NCBI RefSeq assembly: GCF_900102185.1
Contig: NZ_LT629690.1
Coordinates: 4,154,001 to 4,218,000, forward strand
From: Terriglobus roseus
GTDB lineage: Bacteria > Acidobacteriota > Terriglobia > Terriglobales > Acidobacteriaceae
DNA: 64,000 nucleotides
Reading direction: 5' to 3'
Shown: piece by piece, positions 724 through 63,840 of the stretch
How the letters are laid out: every line of letters begins with the position of its first letter
How positions within the stretch are numbered: position 1 is the first letter of the stretch
Notes under the pieces: generated by a model
Seen by the model: only the letters and a program-made list of their open reading frames with translations
Told to the model about the DNA's origin: nothing
Databases searched by the model: none
Program-made: the position numbers and the translations under genes

Positions 724-3378
724 TCACTCATGACGCAGCGTGCTTTGTGGGTCTGTCGCGGACGCTCGCCGAGCCGGAATCCAACAAGCGACTAACGCCA
801 CCAACATAAGAAACAGTGGCGTCAATGTGAAAGAGATGGCGTCATAGGCTGTTATTCCACTCTGCAGGCTTGCAGCGACCTTCGAAGCTGCGAGGGCCAA
901 CGGAAAGCCGATCGCCAACGCGATGACCGTACGCGCTATCCCATAACGAACGATCAAGCTCTGTATCTGGCCCATAGTCGCACCGAGCGCGAGACGAATC
1001 CCCATTTCCTTCGTCCGACGCTCAACGGAATAGCTCATCACACCGTAGAGTCCCACAGTAGCCAGCAACAGACCAGCCAAGCCAAACACTCCGAAGATGG
1101 TCGACTCCGCTCGTGGAATGATCAATGAATCCATCACCTGTTCCGCCATCTCTTTCTGATGGAAGATGGCAAGCGATGGGTCGACGGAGTGCACCTCAGC
1201 CTGGAGCGCATTCGCCATCTGCGCGCCGTTTCCCTGGTAGTGAACCATCAGAGAATAGCCAAGCAGTGGCGCCGCAGTGCCCATATTCTGCTCCAACGCT
1301 TCATACACAATGGGTGGGTTGTCTTCGAAATTCATCATCGTCGACTTGCTGTTTTTCACGACACCGATGATCTCGTAGCTGACGGGCGTTTGTGGGCTCG
1401 CATCCTTCTGTAGCGTCGGCGTCAAATACTGACCCACCGCACGGCGATCCTTGAACATCTGGTGTGCGAATGCTTCATTCACGATCATCTGTTTCGCAGC
1501 ATTCGGCCCTGCACCGTTGAAGTTCCTGCCTTCTAACTGCTGGATGCCCATCGTGGCAAAGTATCCCGGCCCAACATCGTAAACATCTGCTTCAGGGTCA
1601 AGCCCAAGGTCTCCAGGTCGGCCCACGTGATGAAACTTCTTCGACTTCATGCCGATCGAAAGAGGCGTGGAGTCAGTCCATGCAGCCGATGCAACTTGAG
1701 GCATCGCCATCACACCGTCCAACACACGTTTCAAAACCAGCGGCACCTGCTCCGCTTTGTATCCGTTGTGGACTGGATCGATGGAAAGCACCCGCACCCC
1801 ATCCATACGAAGTCCAGTATCGCCATTGGTCAGCTTGAGCAGGCTATGGAGATAAAGCGATGTCGTACACAGCAGAACCATGGTTGCAGCGATCTGCACC
1901 ATCACAAGCACATCGCGCATGGCCCAGCGGCGTCCCGGCTTCTCCAAACTGCTTTCACCTTTCAATGCGTTTGGAACCGATGGTCGTGTAGCCGCAAGTG
2001 CCGGGCCCAATCCGCATAGCATCCCAGCCACCACGCTTAATCCAAAGGCGTACCAAAGCACCACCGTGGATATGTTCAGGGTGAGATCAATCGGTAGATC
2101 AACCGGCATGTGAAAGTACGTAAGCGCGCGCATCGCCAACACACTTGCACCAACGCCGACCGCACCACCGCCAAAGGACAAGACCAGGCTCTCCAGCAGC
2201 ATTGGCTGTATCAGTTGCCACCGCGTCCCACCCAAGGCAATGCGTATGGCCATCTCCCTATGTCTCGCCATCGCTCGAGACAACTGCAGATTCGTAACAT
2301 TGGAAACTGCAATTGCTAATACAAGCAGTGCTATCCCCATGACTGCCGCCACGAAGGCAGCGATGTGCACCCACGCCTCAGCAGGTAGGCTCCCTGCTTG
2401 CTCACATCGAAGTTGTCGTTCCTGCATCTCCGTCGGAAACGCAATCGCAAGGCGCTGCGACACAGCATTCAATTCCGCCTGGGCCGTTGCTCGGTCCGCT
2501 CCCGGAGCGAATCGGGCAATGACATTGACAAGCTCGCTATCCGTTTCTTGAAGAAATCCCAGGCTCGCTTGCTGGCTCAGCGGGATCCAGAAGTCCGCAA
2601 CCTGCATTTGCAGGGTTCCACGAAATTTAGGCTTCGCTACGCCAATCACAGTGAACGGCTTTCCAGACAGAAACACCGTCTTGCCGATCACTCCATCGTC
2701 TGCATTGAAGTAAACCCTCCACAGGTCGTAGCTCAACACGATCACGGGAGAGTACACATCGCGGCGTCCAAATCCCCGACCGAGCGTCATCGGGACTTGA
2801 GTGACATCGAAGTAGTTCTGTGTCACGCTCTGGCCCCACGCCCGCCTTGGTTCGCCTCTGCCAGTAAGGGCCACCTGAATGTGTGACGTGAAGGCAGCCA
2901 CATCCGAAAACGATTTAAGTTGTCCCTGCAGGCTCTCGAATACGTCCGCGTAAACGAGCTGTGCACGTTGCCCATGTTGATCGGTTGGATAAACACTCAT
3001 GAGCTTTGCAGGATCTCCAACCGGAGGACCTTGCAGCGCAATTTTGTCCACGCCTGAGAAGACAAGCGCATTCGCGGCGATTCCAATTCCAAGCGAGAGC
3101 ATCACCGTCAGTGCGGAGGAAGGCGCACTGATGAGCTTTCTCAGCACATAGCGCAGGTCTCTCCACATGTGCTCAATCCAAAGGAAACTACTTGCCCGCC
3201 AAACTTCTTCGCGTACGCGATTGACGCTTCCGAATTTCAGGTGTGCACGCCGCCGTGCTTCGTCCTTGTCCATGCCACGGGCAATGTTCGCGTCGATCTC
3301 TTCTTCCAGATACAGTTCGATCTCTTGTTGCAATTCCAGATCAGCCTGCTTACGCCGAAAGAATCTTTGCCATCTCAT
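724..3378 (-). CDS. ADOP-family duplicated ABC-type permease (MacB/FtsX-like)
   Basis: An 884-residue membrane protein of the acidobacterial duplicated orphan permease type. The N-terminal 65 residues form the charged cap typical of the family (ELQQEIELYLEEEIDANIARG), followed by a first membrane segment near residue 90 and two successive MacB-periplasmic-core plus FtsX units (FtsX helices near 340-460 and 760-875). There is no ATPase domain and no ATPase gene beside it, which is usual for ADOPs, so the substrate is unknown; efflux or lipoprotein handling is inference from MacB. Its ATG overlaps the stop of a 36-codon upstream ORF (ATGA), implying translational coupling. A PadR regulator, often found upstream of ADOPs, is not seen here. 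Confidence 0.9.
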   Translation of the reverse strand: MRWQRFFRRKQADLELQQEIELYLEEEIDANIARGMDKDEARRRAHLKFGSVNRVREEVWRASSFLWIEHMWRDLRYVLRKLISAPSSALTVMLSLGIGIAANALVFSGVDKIALQGPPVGDPAKLMSVYPTDQHGQRAQLVYADVFESLQGQLKSFSDVAAFTSHIQVALTGRGEPRRAWGQSVTQNYFDVTQVPMTLGRGFGRRDVYSPVIVLSYDLWRVYFNADDGVIGKTVFLSGKPFTVIGVAKPKFRGTLQMQVADFWIPLSQQASLGFLQETDSELVNVIARFAPGADRATAQAELNAVSQRLAIAFPTEMQERQLRCEQAGSLPAEAWVHIAAFVAAVMGIALLVLAIAVSNVTNLQLSRAMARHREMAIRIALGGTRWQLIQPMLLESLVLSFGGGAVGVGASVLAMRALTYFHMPVDLPIDLTLNISTVVLWYAFGLSVVAGMLCGLGPALAATRPSVPNALKGESSLEKPGRRWAMRDVLVMVQIAATMVLLCTTSLYLHSLLKLTNGDTGLRMDGVRVLSIDPVHNGYKAEQVPLVLKRVLDGVMAMPQVASAAWTDSTPLSIGMKSKKFHHVGRPGDLGLDPEADVYDVGPGYFATMGIQQLEGRNFNGAGPNAAKQMIVNEAFAHQMFKDRRAVGQYLTPTLQKDASPQTPVSYEIIGVVKNSKSTMMNFEDNPPIVYEALEQNMGTAAPLLGYSLMVHYQGNGAQMANALQAEVHSVDPSLAIFHQKEMAEQVMDSLIIPRAESTIFGVFGLAGLLLATVGLYGVMSYSVERRTKEMGIRLALGATMGQIQSLIVRYGIARTVIALAIGFPLALAASKVAASLQSGITAYDAISFTLTPLFLMLVALVACWIPARRASATDPQSTLRHE

Positions 3379-3744: not shown

Positions 3745-3985
3745 CTGTCAAGCCCCTAAGCCAGCTAAGGCCAACAAACAAAAGCAAATAGAGTTGGCAT
3801 GGTATTTCTTCCAAATCACTAAAATAGAAATAAAGAAGAACAAAGGGCCAATGCTCAAGGGATAACTTCTTTAGAAAGAAGATTTTGCCCCTAACCTCAA
3901 TGGATAGACGATTTTAGCGTCACCCCAAAACCTAACCCCAATGAAATGACGATTTTGCGAAAACAGGGAGAGGGGGGAGGGGTAT
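3745..3985 (+). repeat. Dispersed intergenic repeat, copy A
   Basis: About 240 bases that recur, diverged but collinear, near the other end of the window (62993-63225) in the same orientation. Order of parts: a left block starting CTGTCAAGCCCC; a conserved block AAAGCAAATAGAG(T/C)TGGCATG; CACTAAAATAGAAA; then three spaced units of the form TAACCCCAAT-GGAAAG-ACGATTTT-(A/G)G at 3864-3887, 3892-3917 and 3933-3959; and a G-rich end (AAAACAGGGAGAGGGGGGAG). No coding potential or transposase is seen. It lies directly upstream of folC. Non-autonomous mobile element, structured RNA or regulatory repeat are all possible. Confidence 0.75.
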
Positions 3986-4005: not shown

Positions 4006-5376
4006 ATGCAGTACGAGGAAGCAGTCAGTAAGCTGTACACCCTGAGCGGAGAGCTGGCACCAGCGGCTCCGGGAACGCCGCGCCGCAAGTTTGAACTGGA
4101 CCACATGCGGACACTGGTCGCCGCACTCGGCAATCCCCAGAACAGTTTCCCGTCTGTACTGATCGCAGGTACCAACGGCAAAGGCTCCACAGCCGCAACG
4201 CTCGCCAGTATCCTCAGCGTCTCCGGCTACCGCACCGGCCTCTACACCTCGCCGCACCTGCTGCGACCCAACGAACGCATCCAGATCAGCGGCGTAACAC
4301 CCGGCCAGAACTCCCTGGCCGAGATCGCCGACCAGGCTTTCGCCGATAGTTTTGAAAAGGTAGAAACAGCAGCGGCCCGGCTCGTAAACGAAGGCAAACT
4401 GCCGCACGCACCCAGCTTCTTTGAGGTCATCACAGCCATCGCCTTCGTCGCCTTCGCCGAAGCGAAGATAGACATCGCCGTTCTCGAAGTAGGACTCGGC
4501 GGCCGCCTCGACGCCACCAACATAGTCGAACCACTACTCTCCGTCATCACGGACATAGCACTCGACCACACAGAATGGCTCGGCAACACGCTGACGGAGA
4601 TCGCCCGCGAGAAGGCCGGCATCCTCCGTCCAAAGGGACTGCTGGTAACTCTGCCGCAGCACCCTGAAGCCAACGCCGCCATCGGCGAAGTAGCCATGGC
4701 ATTGGACGTGACCGGGGTGAACGCTGCCGCCTACTTGCCAGACCGCATCACCAACGATGAACCCTACCCCCTGGTCCTACAGGGACAGGCCATCACGGTA
4801 GCCAGCCCTCTACCGGGGGACCACCAGCGTCGCAACACCGCGCTAGCCATCGCTGTAGCAGAGCAACTTCTTACACAGCAATCATTTACAAAGATCACAC
4901 CACAGTCCATTGAGTCCGGCATAAGAAGCACAAACTGGCCGGGAAGGCTGGAATCCACCACCATTCCGGGCACACAGATCACCCTGCTCATGGACGTAGC
5001 CCACAACCCCGCCGGGGCCTGGACACTACGCAGCCATCTCTCCCGCCAGATTGACGGCGACCACCTACCCGCCCCGCGCACACTAGTCTTCTCCGCTCTG
5101 AAAGACAAGTCCATCCGCGAAATGGCCCAAATTCTGTTTCCACTCTTCGACGGCCCGGAAGACCGCATCCTGCTGGCCCCTATCCAAAGCCCAAGAGCCG
5201 CCAGCGCTGAAGCCTTGGCCGAAGTAGCAGCAGACCTGGACACCGCAGCAGAAGTCTGCACATCTGTAGCCGACGCCATGGACAAAGCCGCAGATCGCAC
5301 CGGAAGCATCGTCGTATCAGGTTCGGTATATCTGGTAGCTGAAGCCAAGACCTGGCTCAAGGAGCAACACGGATGA
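4006..5376 (+). CDS. folC: Bifunctional dihydrofolate synthase/folylpolyglutamate synthase
   Basis: Mur-ligase-type ATP-dependent enzyme of 456 residues that adds glutamate to dihydropteroate and folates in the cytoplasm. Visible motifs are the P-loop AGTNGKGSTAAT, the EVGLGGRLDATN segment, and the C-terminal ligase motif DVAHNPAGAW. I place the start at the ATG beginning MQYEEAVSKLYTLSG, which matches the usual FolC N-terminus. The frame runs a further 20 codons upstream, but those residues (including KQGEGGG) would be encoded by the G-rich end of the dispersed repeat and are unlikely to be protein. The stop overlaps the next start by four bases (ATGA). Confidence 0.95.
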   Translation: MQYEEAVSKLYTLSGELAPAAPGTPRRKFELDHMRTLVAALGNPQNSFPSVLIAGTNGKGSTAATLASILSVSGYRTGLYTSPHLLRPNERIQISGVTPGQNSLAEIADQAFADSFEKVETAAARLVNEGKLPHAPSFFEVITAIAFVAFAEAKIDIAVLEVGLGGRLDATNIVEPLLSVITDIALDHTEWLGNTLTEIAREKAGILRPKGLLVTLPQHPEANAAIGEVAMALDVTGVNAAAYLPDRITNDEPYPLVLQGQAITVASPLPGDHQRRNTALAIAVAEQLLTQQSFTKITPQSIESGIRSTNWPGRLESTTIPGTQITLLMDVAHNPAGAWTLRSHLSRQIDGDHLPAPRTLVFSALKDKSIREMAQILFPLFDGPEDRILLAPIQSPRAASAEALAEVAADLDTAAEVCTSVADAMDKAADRTGSIVVSGSVYLVAEAKTWLKEQHG

Positions 5377-62255: not shown

Positions 62256-62963
62256 ATGGTGAAGCAGCGAAAGGGCGGTCCAAGGCGTGAAGAATCCCTT
62301 TCACGCGAAAACATCATCCAGGCATCCATTGAGCTGCTGGATAGCGATGGTGAAGAAGGGCTGACATTCCGAGCGCTTGCTGAACGGCTGGCGACTGGTC
62401 CCGGTGCTCTCTATTGGCATATCGCCAACAAAAGCGATCTGCTCATTGCAGCCTGCGACAGCTTGGTCGCCCGAACAATGAGCCAGATTCCGGTTACCAC
62501 CCCGAACGAAACGATTCGTGCCGTAGCGCTCGCCCTGTTTGACCTGATCGACGCGCACCCCTGGCTAGGCTCAGCCCTCACAAGCTCTCCGGGAGCGCTC
62601 CCTGTCGTGCGTGTTCTTGAGCCCATCGGCCAGCAGATTCAAGCGCTCGGAGTGCCTGACGATCAGCAATGGAATGCCACGGGAACATTGATGGCCTTCA
62701 TCCTGGGCGTCAGCAGGCAGAACGCCGCCAACCGGCAACTCGCAAGAGCGAAAAATCTTGATCGCGCCCACTTCCTCGACGTGGTGGCCACCGCATGGTC
62801 ACAGCTCGACCCGAAGGAACATCCGTTCGTGAGCACCGTCGTCGGACGGATACGAAACCACGATGATCGCGCAGACTTTCTCGCCGGAATCGATGTAATC
62901 CTCGCGGGCATTGCATCACTGCAATCCAATTCACGTCCTCCACTCAAACGTCAGCGTTCGTGA
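62256..62963 (+). CDS. TetR/AcrR family regulator, TetR C-terminal type
   Basis: A 235-residue regulator. The DNA-binding domain is LSRENIIQASIELLDSDGEEGLTFRALAERLATGPGALYWHIANKSDLL, with the TetR-subfamily LYWHI recognition helix; the remaining 180 residues are an all-helical ligand domain. It faces the TetX-like gene across two identical-arm operators, the classical tetA-tetR arrangement, so it likely represses both genes and responds to a small-molecule substrate. Confidence 0.88.
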   Translation: MVKQRKGGPRREESLSRENIIQASIELLDSDGEEGLTFRALAERLATGPGALYWHIANKSDLLIAACDSLVARTMSQIPVTTPNETIRAVALALFDLIDAHPWLGSALTSSPGALPVVRVLEPIGQQIQALGVPDDQQWNATGTLMAFILGVSRQNAANRQLARAKNLDRAHFLDVVATAWSQLDPKEHPFVSTVVGRIRNHDDRADFLAGIDVILAGIASLQSNSRPPLKRQRS

Positions 62964-62992: not shown

Positions 62993-63225
62993 CTGTCAAG
63001 CCCCTTGACCACTCAAGCCCAACAAATCAAAGCAAATAGAGCTGGCATGTTATTTCCCCGAACTCACTAAAATAGAAACAGAAGAGAAAAGGGCCACGCA
63101 CGCGCGGCCCTAACTCCTTTAGAAAGACGATTTTGCCTCTAACCCCAATGGGCAGACGATTTTAGCGACATCCGCGCCGTAACCCCAATAGAAAGACGAT
63201 TTTAGAAAAACAGGGGGGAGGGGGT
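62993..63225 (+). repeat. Dispersed intergenic repeat, copy B
   Basis: Second copy of the element at 3745-3985, same orientation. It starts CTGTCAAGCCCC and keeps AAAGCAAATAGAGCTGGCAT, CACTAAAATAGAAA and three TAACCCCAAT..ACGATTTT units (63111-63135, 63140-63165, 63180-63205), ending in a G-run (AAACAGGGGGGAGGGGG). Here the middle contains GGGCC-ACGCACGCGC-GGCCC, a short stem absent in copy A. It fills the gap between the convergent TetR and ruvA genes. Confidence 0.75.
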
Positions 63226-63228
63226 ACC

Positions 63229-63840
63229 CTACCGGATGGCCTGCATGCTGTAACGGAACAACGCATCGAAGTCCGTCCGAATCGTCAGTTCAGAGCTTTC
63301 GTGTTTCGCAATCGCCGTCTCCACGGCGCGCTGAGCGCTGTCGCGCTTGTAGCCCAGGTTCACCAGCGCAGACAGCACATCGTCCACCACAGGTCCGCCC
63401 TGGAATCCGGAAGTCTGCACAGGTGCAGCGGCCTGCAGATCGTCCAGCTTGTCCTTCAGCTCCAGCACCACGCGTTCGGCAGTCTTCTTGCCAATGCCCG
63501 GAATCTTCACCAGCATCGCAGTGTCGCCACCGCGAATAGCACTCACAAGACGCTCCGCCGAAAGTCCACTCAACACCGTGATCCCCAGCTTCGGCCCAAT
63601 CCCGCTGACAGTGATCAGCCGCTCAAACAGGCGCTTCTCATCGCGGTCGGTAAAGCCGAACAGTGCAATCGCATCCTCACGCACCTGCGTGTTGATGTGC
63701 AGCGACACCTCAGCGCCTTCATCCGGCAACGAGGTGAACGTGGTCACGCTGATGGCCACGTCATAACCAACACCGCCGCAGTCCACAATGACAGCGTTGG
63801 GCGACTTGGAGAGCAAACGTCCGCGCAGGTGAGCAATCAT
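63229..63840 (-). CDS. ruvA: Holliday junction branch-migration protein RuvA
   Basis: A 203-residue tetrameric junction-binding protein. The OB domain is MIAHLRGRLLSKSPNAVIVDCGGVGYDV; two helix-hairpin-helix motifs follow (LFERLITVSGIGPKLGITVLSGL and MLVKIPGIGKKTAERVVLEL), and domain III (VDDVLSALVNLGYKRDSAQRAVETAI) contacts RuvB. Usual length. Its ATG immediately follows the stop of the upstream gene (TAGATG), so it is co-translated with that partial gene. No ruvB or ruvC in the window. Confidence 0.95.
   Translation of the reverse strand: MIAHLRGRLLSKSPNAVIVDCGGVGYDVAISVTTFTSLPDEGAEVSLHINTQVREDAIALFGFTDRDEKRLFERLITVSGIGPKLGITVLSGLSAERLVSAIRGGDTAMLVKIPGIGKKTAERVVLELKDKLDDLQAAAPVQTSGFQGGPVVDDVLSALVNLGYKRDSAQRAVETAIAKHESSELTIRTDFDALFRYSMQAIR

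What the first reader, a model, noticed from the sequence alone, without database searches (positions are those of the whole stretch)
3745..3985. Dispersed intergenic repeat with three ACGATTTT units (copy A)
A 240-base block without coding potential recurs in the same orientation 59 kb away (62993-63225) with the same internal order: CTGTCAAGCCCC, the AAATAGAG(T/C)TGGCAT core, CACTAAAATAGAAA, three spaced units of TAACCCCAAT..GACGATTTT(A/G)G, and a G-rich end. Preserved order with diverged spacers suggests a family that spread by transposition or recombination, or a conserved RNA. No transposase and no clear terminal inverted repeat are visible. I know of no named family that matches it.
Basis: partly seen in the sequence, partly recalled or inferred. 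Interest (0 to 1): 0.75.

Follow-up and report, generated by a model that had tools for sequence, protein, structure and literature searches.

The report
Dispersed RNA-like repeats with partner gene
The two repeat blocks belong to a family of some forty scattered elements, built like small RNA genes, in a soil bacterium; among its close relatives the family was found only in genomes that also carry one uncharacterised small protein gene, which itself bears the same block, so it looks like an undescribed two-part genetic system.

Summary
The 240-base block occurs at 40 places in the 4.85 Mb chromosome, plus 4 found later. Each copy has a promoter-like module (TTGGCA-N20-TANAAT), often a hairpin, three spaced motifs (here GACGATTTT) and a G-rich end. 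At least 36 of 40 copies sit at the same place in a sister species, so this is no recent burst of transposition. Terriglobus roseus has 33 places, mostly elsewhere, with another motif (AATCTAATTTTT) and partly unrelated promoter-like sequences.

The new finding is a partner gene, here called CYFH after its C-x-H...CYFH pattern. All nine held congeners with CYFH carry the block at that gene (degenerate in one); in the ten without CYFH no copy was detected. The CYFH-linked block has the same motif variant as the scattered copies in four of five testable groups; the fifth is uninformative. CYFH is nearly confined to the family and has only weak database matches.

I read this as a non-coding RNA family bound by CYFH through the triple motif. 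Transcription and binding are inferred. REPIN-RAYT and type III toxin-antitoxin loci resemble it, but defining features are not met.

The parts
3745..3985 (+). copy A of the dispersed block, between an FtsX/MacB-type permease gene (minus strand, 724-3378) and a Mur-ligase-domain gene on the same strand
   Evidence: neighbours by Pfam
3785..3808 (+). dyad-like CAAATA-N12-TATTTC around the -35-like hexamer, copy A
   Evidence: conserved in the alignment
3794..3799 (+). -35-like TTGGCA, copy A
3820..3825 (+). -10-like TAAAAT, 20 nt after the -35-like hexamer, copy A (no clear hairpin follows in this copy)
3878..3886 (+). motif 1 of copy A (GAAGATTTT)
3907..3915 (+). motif 2 of copy A (GACGATTTT)
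3948..3956 (+). motif 3 of copy A (GACGATTTT)
3966..3982 (+). G-rich end of copy A
4006..5376 (+). gene downstream of copy A: Mur ligase middle and C-terminal domains (FolC-like by eye; start codon chosen by eye)
62256..62963 (+). gene upstream of copy B: TetR-family regulator
62993..63225 (+). copy B of the dispersed block
63033..63056 (+). dyad-like CAAATA-N12-TATTTC, copy B
63042..63047 (+). -35-like CTGGCA, copy B
63068..63073 (+). -10-like TAAAAT, copy B
63091..63110 (+). hairpin of copy B, GGGCCACG-CACG-CGCGGCCC, 7 of 8 pairs; too short in the loop to count among the 9-bp stems
63126..63134 (+). motif 1 of copy B (GACGATTTT)
63155..63163 (+). motif 2 of copy B (GACGATTTT)
63195..63203 (+). 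motif 3 of copy B (GACGATTTT)
63213..63229 (+). G-rich end and GGTACCC of copy B; the ruvA stop codon lies at 63229-63231 on the minus strand
63229..63840 (-). convergent gene after copy B: RuvA

Best explanation
Each block is a small transcription unit: a promoter, then a short non-coding RNA with a 5' hairpin in most copies, three copies of a genome-specific recognition motif and a G-rich 3' part. The family belongs to one gene, CYFH, which carries the same block next to it and encodes a small protein with a probable zinc-binding C-x-H / C / C-x2-H cluster and a helical C-terminal part. I propose that CYFH binds the triple motif in the RNA. The block at the CYFH gene would give feedback on CYFH, and the scattered copies would supply further target or decoy RNAs in trans. 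Copies stay in place among near species and are gained and lost slowly over the genus. SHOWN by comparison: the family, its architecture, conservation in place, co-occurrence with CYFH, the block at CYFH, and agreement of motif variants in four of five testable groups. INFERRED: that the block is transcribed, that CYFH binds it, that the bound form is RNA rather than DNA, that selection keeps the copies, and what the complex does.
For: Co-occurrence: CYFH is in 9 of 19 genus genomes. The block was found by DNA search in 8 of those 9 and in none of the other 10, with two query copies of different motif type; one-sided Fisher p 1.2e-4, species not independent, several genomes incomplete. In G014, missed by DNA search, the block sits at its CYFH gene, so all 9 CYFH genes have it: 6 with units before the gene, 3 after (G001, G014, G018; one recognisable unit in G018). 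The CYFH-linked block scores best with other blocks of its own motif group in G000/G007/G013, G011/G004, G005 and G001; G018 is uninformative and G014 has no other copies to compare. Family-wide, 60 of 87 CYFH leaders have a G-run within 200 nt, against 7.6 expected from shuffles and 4 of 88 control stretches (near-duplicate leaders not removed). Transcription: -10-like hexamer TAAAAT 68, TACAAT 12, TAGAAT 9, TAAACT 1 of 90 copies, spacer 20 in 85 of the 89 with a -35 hit (the regex demanded TA....T). In T. roseus the same block follows at least two quite different promoter-like sequences. In L372 an ORF starts 6 nt after the -10, as in a leaderless mRNA, and ends before the units. Hairpin: a 9-bp stem in 60 of 99 copies; both-side changes at positions 5-9 (1, 3, 1, 1, 3 copies, leaving out L255, which is one base out of register; some are orthologues of each other) against 12 unpaired of 540 cells; stems were chosen for at least 8 of 9 pairs. 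Conservation: 18 of the 19 copies syntenic on both sides have median identity 0.89 with G013 (the 19th, L038, has 0.71); 120 random own pairs 0.78.
Against: No expression data were available. RNAalifold gives no consensus structure for the whole block or for the T. roseus set. 39 of 99 copies, A and B included, lack the 9-bp stem, and the 31 of 90 copies outside the GGGCC class have median z only -0.5. In some genera units occur in inverted orientation (L127, L132, L206, L210, L214 by eye; L383), which fits a double-stranded DNA site at least as well as an RNA motif. N20 is long for a sigma-70 spacer, and three T. roseus copies (L298, L299, L301) show no clear -10 (by eye). Only 23 of 87 CYFH leaders show a significant direct repeat by my crude test (control 6 of 88). 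G061 has seven CYFH genes but, beside three of their leaders, only two further hits below E 1e-3. No neutral intergenic baseline was measured for the conservation. The CYFH fold model is poor (mean pLDDT 45.7), so zinc or nucleic-acid binding is a guess from the Cys/His pattern and sub-threshold Pfam hits. Shared descent of the species could explain part of the motif agreement.
Confidence: 0.45

Rival explanations
1. A REPIN-RAYT-like arrangement: the scattered blocks are non-autonomous mobile DNA, and CYFH is, or recruits, the protein that copies them. The CYFH-linked block marks the parent element.
For: One CYFH gene per genus genome that has it, with up to dozens of extragenic copies, and co-occurrence. 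Sites mostly differ between the own genome and T. roseus: of 40 own and 30 T. roseus loci compared by nearest genes, L018/L286 and the CYFH locus share a site; L015/L303 share a neighbour (71% aa) at a different distance and L008/L278 a weak one (35% aa). One own site (L002) has no copy in two sister species. Some copies hold an ORF between the 5' module and the units: CYFH in G001, G014 and G018, an ABM-domain protein in L372, a short ORF in L075.
Against: Flanks share no target duplication beyond chance (mean longest shared word 3.45 against 3.39 for shuffled pairing, 40 copies); the ends match as inverted repeats only weakly (7.55 of 12 against 5.65 inside, mostly C-run against G-run). No known nuclease or transposase domain was found in CYFH. 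Most copies are old: at least 36 of 40 in place in G013, paralogues 78% alike. No hit in plasmids or viral contigs. A passive mobile DNA does not need the promoter-like signals found in nearly all copies.
Confidence: 0.25
2. A DNA-level site array: CYFH is a sequence-specific DNA-binding protein, the three motifs are its sites, and the blocks act as operators, roadblocks or chromosome-organising sites.
For: The motif is short, repeated and differs between whole genomes; units occur inverted in some genera; many copies end a few bases from the stop codon of a convergent gene, where a roadblock would act as a terminator.
Against: Nearly every unit array examined in the genus has a promoter-like module in front, including unrelated types in T. 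roseus (exceptions L298, L299, L301), and 60 of 99 copies have a 9-bp stem with some compensating changes; a passive site needs neither. No strand bias with respect to replication was apparent from the coordinates (hand count 24 to 16, origin assumed at position 1).
Confidence: 0.2
3. A type III toxin-antitoxin-like locus: the three-unit RNA is the antitoxin, CYFH the toxin, and the scattered copies are solitary antitoxin genes.
For: The own CYFH locus has the layout listed for type III loci in PMC8860590 (passages read): promoter, repeats, short hairpin, then the ORF. The motif varies in step with the gene's group.
Against: CYFH matches no PADLOC model and has no visible RNase signature; a single member of 13 has a weak Pfam hit to a papain-fold toxin model (E 0.0059). 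In G001, G014 and G018 the units lie after the gene. Dozens of antitoxin-only loci per genome would be without precedent (recalled).
Confidence: 0.1

Closest known systems
REPIN-RAYT systems (PMC3116915, passages read)
   Same: One or a few protein genes per genome with adjacent repeats, many extragenic copies, repeat type going with the gene.
   Different: REPINs are short inverted REP doublets thought to be moved by an IS200-like tyrosine transposase; here 240-base directional blocks with promoter-like module, three direct motifs and G-run, and a protein with no such match.
Type III toxin-antitoxin loci such as ToxIN (PMC8860590, passages read)
   Same: Promoter, short nucleotide repeats, hairpin, then a small ORF; repeat sequence differs between clusters.
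   Different: No ToxN-type protein match; units may lie after the gene; dozens of gene-less copies.
CsrB/CsrC-type protein-sequestering RNAs (recalled; CsrB named only in an abstract in the listing)
   Same: An RNA with several copies of a short motif that would titrate one RNA-binding protein.
   Different: One to a few loci and GGA motifs in hairpin loops there (recalled); about forty loci, a genome-specific motif and an unrelated protein here.
Multi-copy bacterial repeats such as REP/BIME, ERIC, MITEs (recalled)
   Same: Intergenic, dispersed, often between convergent genes.
   Different: No clear terminal inverted repeats; conserved promoter-like module; pairing with one gene.

Membership tests
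REPIN-RAYT | Repeat unit is a pair of inverted palindromic REPs | tested here: not met
   Units are direct and non-palindromic in the own genome; inverted units do occur in some other genera
REPIN-RAYT | Adjacent gene encodes an IS200/IS605-like tyrosine (HUH) transposase | tested here: not met
   CYFH has no such match in Pfam, NCBIfam or PADLOC
REPIN-RAYT | Associated protein gene beside one repeat, many extragenic copies elsewhere | tested here: met
Type III toxin-antitoxin | Promoter, nucleotide repeats, hairpin, then toxin ORF | tested here: inconclusive
   Layout met at the own CYFH locus; units after the ORF in G001, G014, G018
Type III toxin-antitoxin | Toxin of the ToxN/AbiQ, CptN or TenpN families (family names partly recalled) | tested here: not met
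   no such match in PADLOC or Pfam
Type III toxin-antitoxin | RNA repeat forms a pseudoknot cleaved and bound by the toxin | not tested
   no pseudoknot prediction was run; cleavage needs the bench
Known structured RNA family (Rfam 15) | Score above a family's gathering cut-off | tested here: not met
   window at gathering threshold and copy B at E up to 1
MITE / classical transposable element | Target-site duplication | tested here: not met
   shared words of left and right flanks as in shuffled pairing, 40 own copies; borders set by TGTCAA and the G-run
MITE / classical transposable element | Terminal inverted repeats | tested here: inconclusive
   best 12-base terminal match 7.55 of 12 against 5.65 inside, largely C-run against G-run
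MITE / classical transposable element | Presence/absence of copies at orthologous sites | tested here: inconclusive
   at least 36 of 40 shared with G013; L002 absent there and in G007, but its upstream flank differs too, so no clean empty site; few sites shared with T. roseus

The most novel reading that the evidence does not exclude
A two-part system not described before: a dispersed family of about forty small RNA genes per genome, each presenting three copies of a recognition motif, together with a dedicated single-copy small Cys/His protein. The motif changes throughout a genome in step with the CYFH lineage: a vertically kept, RNA-based counterpart of REPIN-RAYT without a known transposase.
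Probability: 0.4. Interest if true: 0.87.

Novelty: categorically new. Interest (0 to 1): 0.74.

Why it matters
If right, it adds an unannotated partner pair (a protein family and its nucleic-acid family) that is widespread in a major soil bacterial family: CYFH was found in 90 of 150 sampled family genomes. It gives a natural experiment in co-evolution, since the recognition motif differs across dozens of loci between two groups of one genus, and again in further congeners with few copies. It also offers a test of why bacteria keep dozens of near-identical non-coding units in place. T. roseus is a cultured species with 33 places and one CYFH gene, so the question is directly testable.

Tried and rejected
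Known RNA family: rejected. Plasmid or phage origin: no match of CYFH or of the block in plasmids or viral contigs. Recent transposition burst: rejected, since most sites are shared with G013. Target duplications: none beyond chance. A consensus fold of the whole block: none found. Defence function: no PADLOC match. Upstream neighbours as defence cargo: the upstream ORFs printed looked generic by eye; I did not run them against a library. CYFH structure: one poor model from four sequences; no fold search was run on it. Strand bias with respect to replication: a hand count with the origin assumed at position 1 gave 24 against 16.

Scripts and calls that failed: the regular expression found nothing (mended); the anchors were wrong (mended); the hairpin class caught one sequence only (replaced). 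Rows dropped: 2 of 89 CYFH leaders and 1 of 89 control stretches shorter than 200 bases, loci L219-L248, of which 24 repeat loci already in and 6 do not, L038 of the 19 pairs with both flanks. Searches used 90 copies (40 G000, 25 G007, 25 G013) and 40 + 40 copies; one search used 30 of the 33 T. roseus places. The output was cut, so not all 89 leaders were seen by eye.

Full report
1. The observation. Copies A (3745-3985) and B (62993-63225) align nearly end to end at 78% identity. A whole-genome search with copy A gives 40 places in the single 4.85 Mb contig (41 rows, two of one place). A search with a T. roseus copy and fetched stretches add four places: L372, L373, L374 and L381, of which only the units part was matched. 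In the 101 block loci examined (40 own, 25 G007, 25 G013, 11 others) no block lay wholly inside a predicted gene; in four (L001, L021, L051, L097) the predicted downstream ORF overlaps the block's end by 17-39 bases (my codon-usage predictor). In the 40 own loci the upstream gene points toward the block in 28 of 38 cases with a prediction, and the downstream gene is convergent in 25 of 40. Copy B ends at the stop codon of ruvA; copy A precedes a Mur-ligase-domain gene, FolC-like by eye.

2. Anatomy. The alignment of 40 own copies shows, in order: CTGTCAAGCCCC; GAAATAgAGTTGGCATGgTATTTC, in which GAAATA and TATTTC form a dyad around a -35-like TTGGCA; CTA[ACG]AATAGAAA; a variable stretch that is often a hairpin; three units TAAcyCC...GACGATTTT; and AGAAAAACAGGGGGGAGGGGG, often followed by GGTACCC. 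Over 90 copies of three genomes the -10-like hexamer is TAAAAT 68, TACAAT 12, TAGAAT 9, TAAACT 1. Its variation sits almost wholly at the third base, and the spacer is 20 in 85 of 89 (my regex required TA....T). The class of 59 copies with a GGGCC-type hairpin has median folding z -5.3 against dinucleotide shuffles; the other 31 have median -0.5, with exceptions such as L102, whose hairpin is different in sequence and strong (z -8). A 9-bp stem stands directly before the first TAA in 60 of 99 copies. Leaving out L255, which is one base out of register, positions 5 to 9 show pairs changed on both sides in 1, 3, 1, 1 and 3 copies; 12 of 540 cells are unpaired. Stems were picked for at least 8 of 9 pairs, so this count leans toward pairing, and L009/L088 and L019/L085 are orthologues. 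RNAalifold found no common fold of the whole block (a marginal -2.1 kcal/mol for the own units). L044 has four units instead of three.

3. Conservation in place. Of 40 own copies, 35 have a counterpart at the matching place in G013 by flank comparison, and L043 makes 36. L002 has no copy at that place in G013 or G007; L014, L039 and L042 are unresolved in G013, though L014 and L042 have matching loci in G007. Matching copies are 0.89 identical (median), random own pairs 0.78. Among 18 of the 19 pairs with both flanks kept, the first 90 bases and the unit part are equally conserved (0.89 and 0.90); the pair left out, L038/L090, is only 0.71 alike, and at L007/L102 (0.79) the hairpin has been replaced by another. 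Both flanks are kept in 19 of 35, only the downstream flank in 15, and L013 has an upstream flank matching one G013 copy (L081) and a downstream flank matching another (L086). In several downstream-only pairs the first 10-45 bases of the block differ as well, while both versions keep TGTCAA (by eye). Recombination between copies, or repeated insertion at the left end, would give this pattern. The flanks of the 40 copies share no target duplication beyond shuffled pairing, and the ends match as inverted repeats only weakly.

4. The other motif. T. roseus (G011; identified as DSM 18391 by the contig NC_018014.1 of the same length) has 37 rows at 33 places by my collapse; the genome table gives it 10% contamination. 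Its motif is mostly AATCTAATTTTT or AATCTGATTTTT, three times, with the same G-run and often GGTACCCC. In front stand different promoter-like sequences: TTGGCGGG-N20-TANAAT, as in the own genome, or TTGACA-N7-TANAAT (L279, L282, L287, L292, L295, L296; L289 with TAAACT), the latter followed by hairpins of their own (by eye). L298, L299 and L301 show no clear -10 (by eye). Comparing the nearest predicted genes of 40 own and 30 T. roseus loci, L018/L286 (91% aa) and the CYFH locus share a site; L015/L303 share a neighbour (71% aa) but 1.15 kb away in T. roseus, L008/L278 and L028/L304 match weakly (35% and 39%), and at L027 the two neighbours are adjacent in T. roseus with no block between them. 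So copies are gained and lost over the genus.

5. The partner gene. In L073 and L075 ORFs lie between the 5' module and the units. One of these ORFs is homologous to the gene directly after own copy L017. That gene, CYFH (155 aa, G000:C1:4848149-4848613), has one copy in each of 9 of 19 genus genomes. Blocks were found by DNA search in 8 of those 9 and in none of the 10 without CYFH, using two query copies of different motif type; Fisher p 1.2e-4, ignoring descent; several of the genomes are incomplete. The ninth, G014, was missed by DNA search but has units with AGGAATTT twice and AGAAATTT once and a G-run right after its CYFH gene. The CYFH gene follows the units in G000, G004, G005, G007, G011 and G013, and precedes them in G001, G014 and G018; G018 has one recognisable unit. 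When the CYFH-linked block is scored against the other blocks of each genome, the best scores fall in its own motif group for G000/G007/G013, G011/G004, G005 and G001; for G018 all scores are alike, and G014 has no other copies. Only the copies at hand were used (39, 24, 34, 29, 6, 2, 3 and 1 per genome). Shared descent of the species could give part of this agreement; what it does not explain is why dozens of copies at mostly different sites carry one motif within a genome.

6. Beyond the genus. The CYFH profile matches 90 of 150 sampled family genomes (41 of 62 genera; 1 to 11 copies; E up to 1e-8). Across the phylum it matches 24 of 297 at E up to 1e-6, 23 of them in the same family. In 87 CYFH leaders of many genera a G-run lies within 200 nt in 60, against 7.6 expected from shuffles and 4 of 88 control stretches; direct repeats at 22-48 spacing are significant in 23 of 87 (control 6 of 88) (near-duplicate leaders were not removed). 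By eye, leaders such as L116 show three TCAATATTTT units and a G-run, and others (L127, L132, L206, L210, L214) show units in inverted orientation. G061, with seven CYFH genes, gave only three of their leaders and two further hits below E 1e-3, so dozens of loose copies are not universal.

7. The protein. CYFH has an invariant C-x-H, C, P, C, H pattern and a conserved C-terminal stretch (LEDxxSIQ...LLLYGLQ). Pfam gives only weak matches (DUF5763 in 6 of 13 members, best 3.8e-4; zf-primase in 6 of 13, best 0.0025; single weak hits to others), all below cut-off where the cut-off was shown. NCBIfam gives a GvpO N-terminal model in 4 of 13 (best 6.6e-4, cut-off not shown) and single weaker hits; PADLOC gives none; the only solved-structure hit is PilT at E 0.7. 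The AlphaFold model from four sequences is poor (mean pLDDT 45.7); the stretch of about residues 64-100, two helices, is the best part.

8. Reading. Two facts favour an RNA product: unrelated promoter-like sequences in front of one block, and a hairpin kept in many copies by some compensating changes. A third is L372, where an ABM-domain ORF begins 6 nt after the -10, as in a leaderless message, and stops before the units. Against it stand the lack of a common fold, the copies without hairpin, and the inverted units, which fit DNA sites. I therefore put 0.45 on an RNA family bound by CYFH, 0.25 on a mobile-DNA reading of REPIN-RAYT type, 0.2 on a DNA site array and 0.1 on a toxin-antitoxin reading. 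The link between block and CYFH itself I hold to be nearly certain.

9. Known or new. Of eight searches of the paper library, six looked for this family or gene and two for comparison systems. The listings seen (4 to 20 titles each, with abstract starts) describe no such family; several searches were diluted by common words. One Acidobacteria comparative-genomics paper (PMC5900883, passages found by keyword, 12 of 32 shown) showed no passage on such repeats. That is no proof of absence, as most subscription journals are not held. REPIN-RAYT (PMC3116915, passages) and ToxIN (PMC8860590, passages) are the nearest in layout, and both fail a defining feature.

Noticed in passing
left flanks of L005, L006, L020, L026, L039, L044 (own genome): A second, palindromic repeat (CGCCGAAGGCGTCGAGAAC-GCACGAAGTGC type, REP-like) stands at or just before the left end of several copies and elsewhere nearby (by eye).
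   Followed up: no
L372 (G000:C1 from 3338256): A copy with an ABM-domain ORF between the 5' module and the units; its ATG lies 6 nt after the -10-like TAAAAT.
   Followed up: partly
L373 and L374 (G000:C1 575.6 kb and 3542.7 kb): Two copies very alike together with some 150 bases of downstream flank; after one of them lies what looks by eye like an integrase remnant.
   Followed up: no
L013 with L081 and L086: A copy whose upstream flank matches one sister-genome copy and whose downstream flank matches another, a likely rearrangement through the repeats.
   Followed up: partly
L279, L282, L287, L289, L292, L295, L296 (T. roseus): A conserved TTGACA-N7-TANAAT sequence (TAAACT in L289) in front of the block, an unusual spacing for a promoter, mostly followed by a strong hairpin with a T-rich tail (by eye).
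   Followed up: no
L127, L132, L206, L210, L214, L383: Units in inverted orientation, able to pair with direct units (by eye).
   Followed up: no
L298 and L299 (T. roseus 3088.8 kb and 2628.3 kb): Two copies with identical printed sequence at distant places, possibly a recent duplication.
   Followed up: no
G126, G055, G031, G053: Some family genomes carry 9 to 11 CYFH genes; in G061, with seven, leaders differ from gene to gene.
   Followed up: partly
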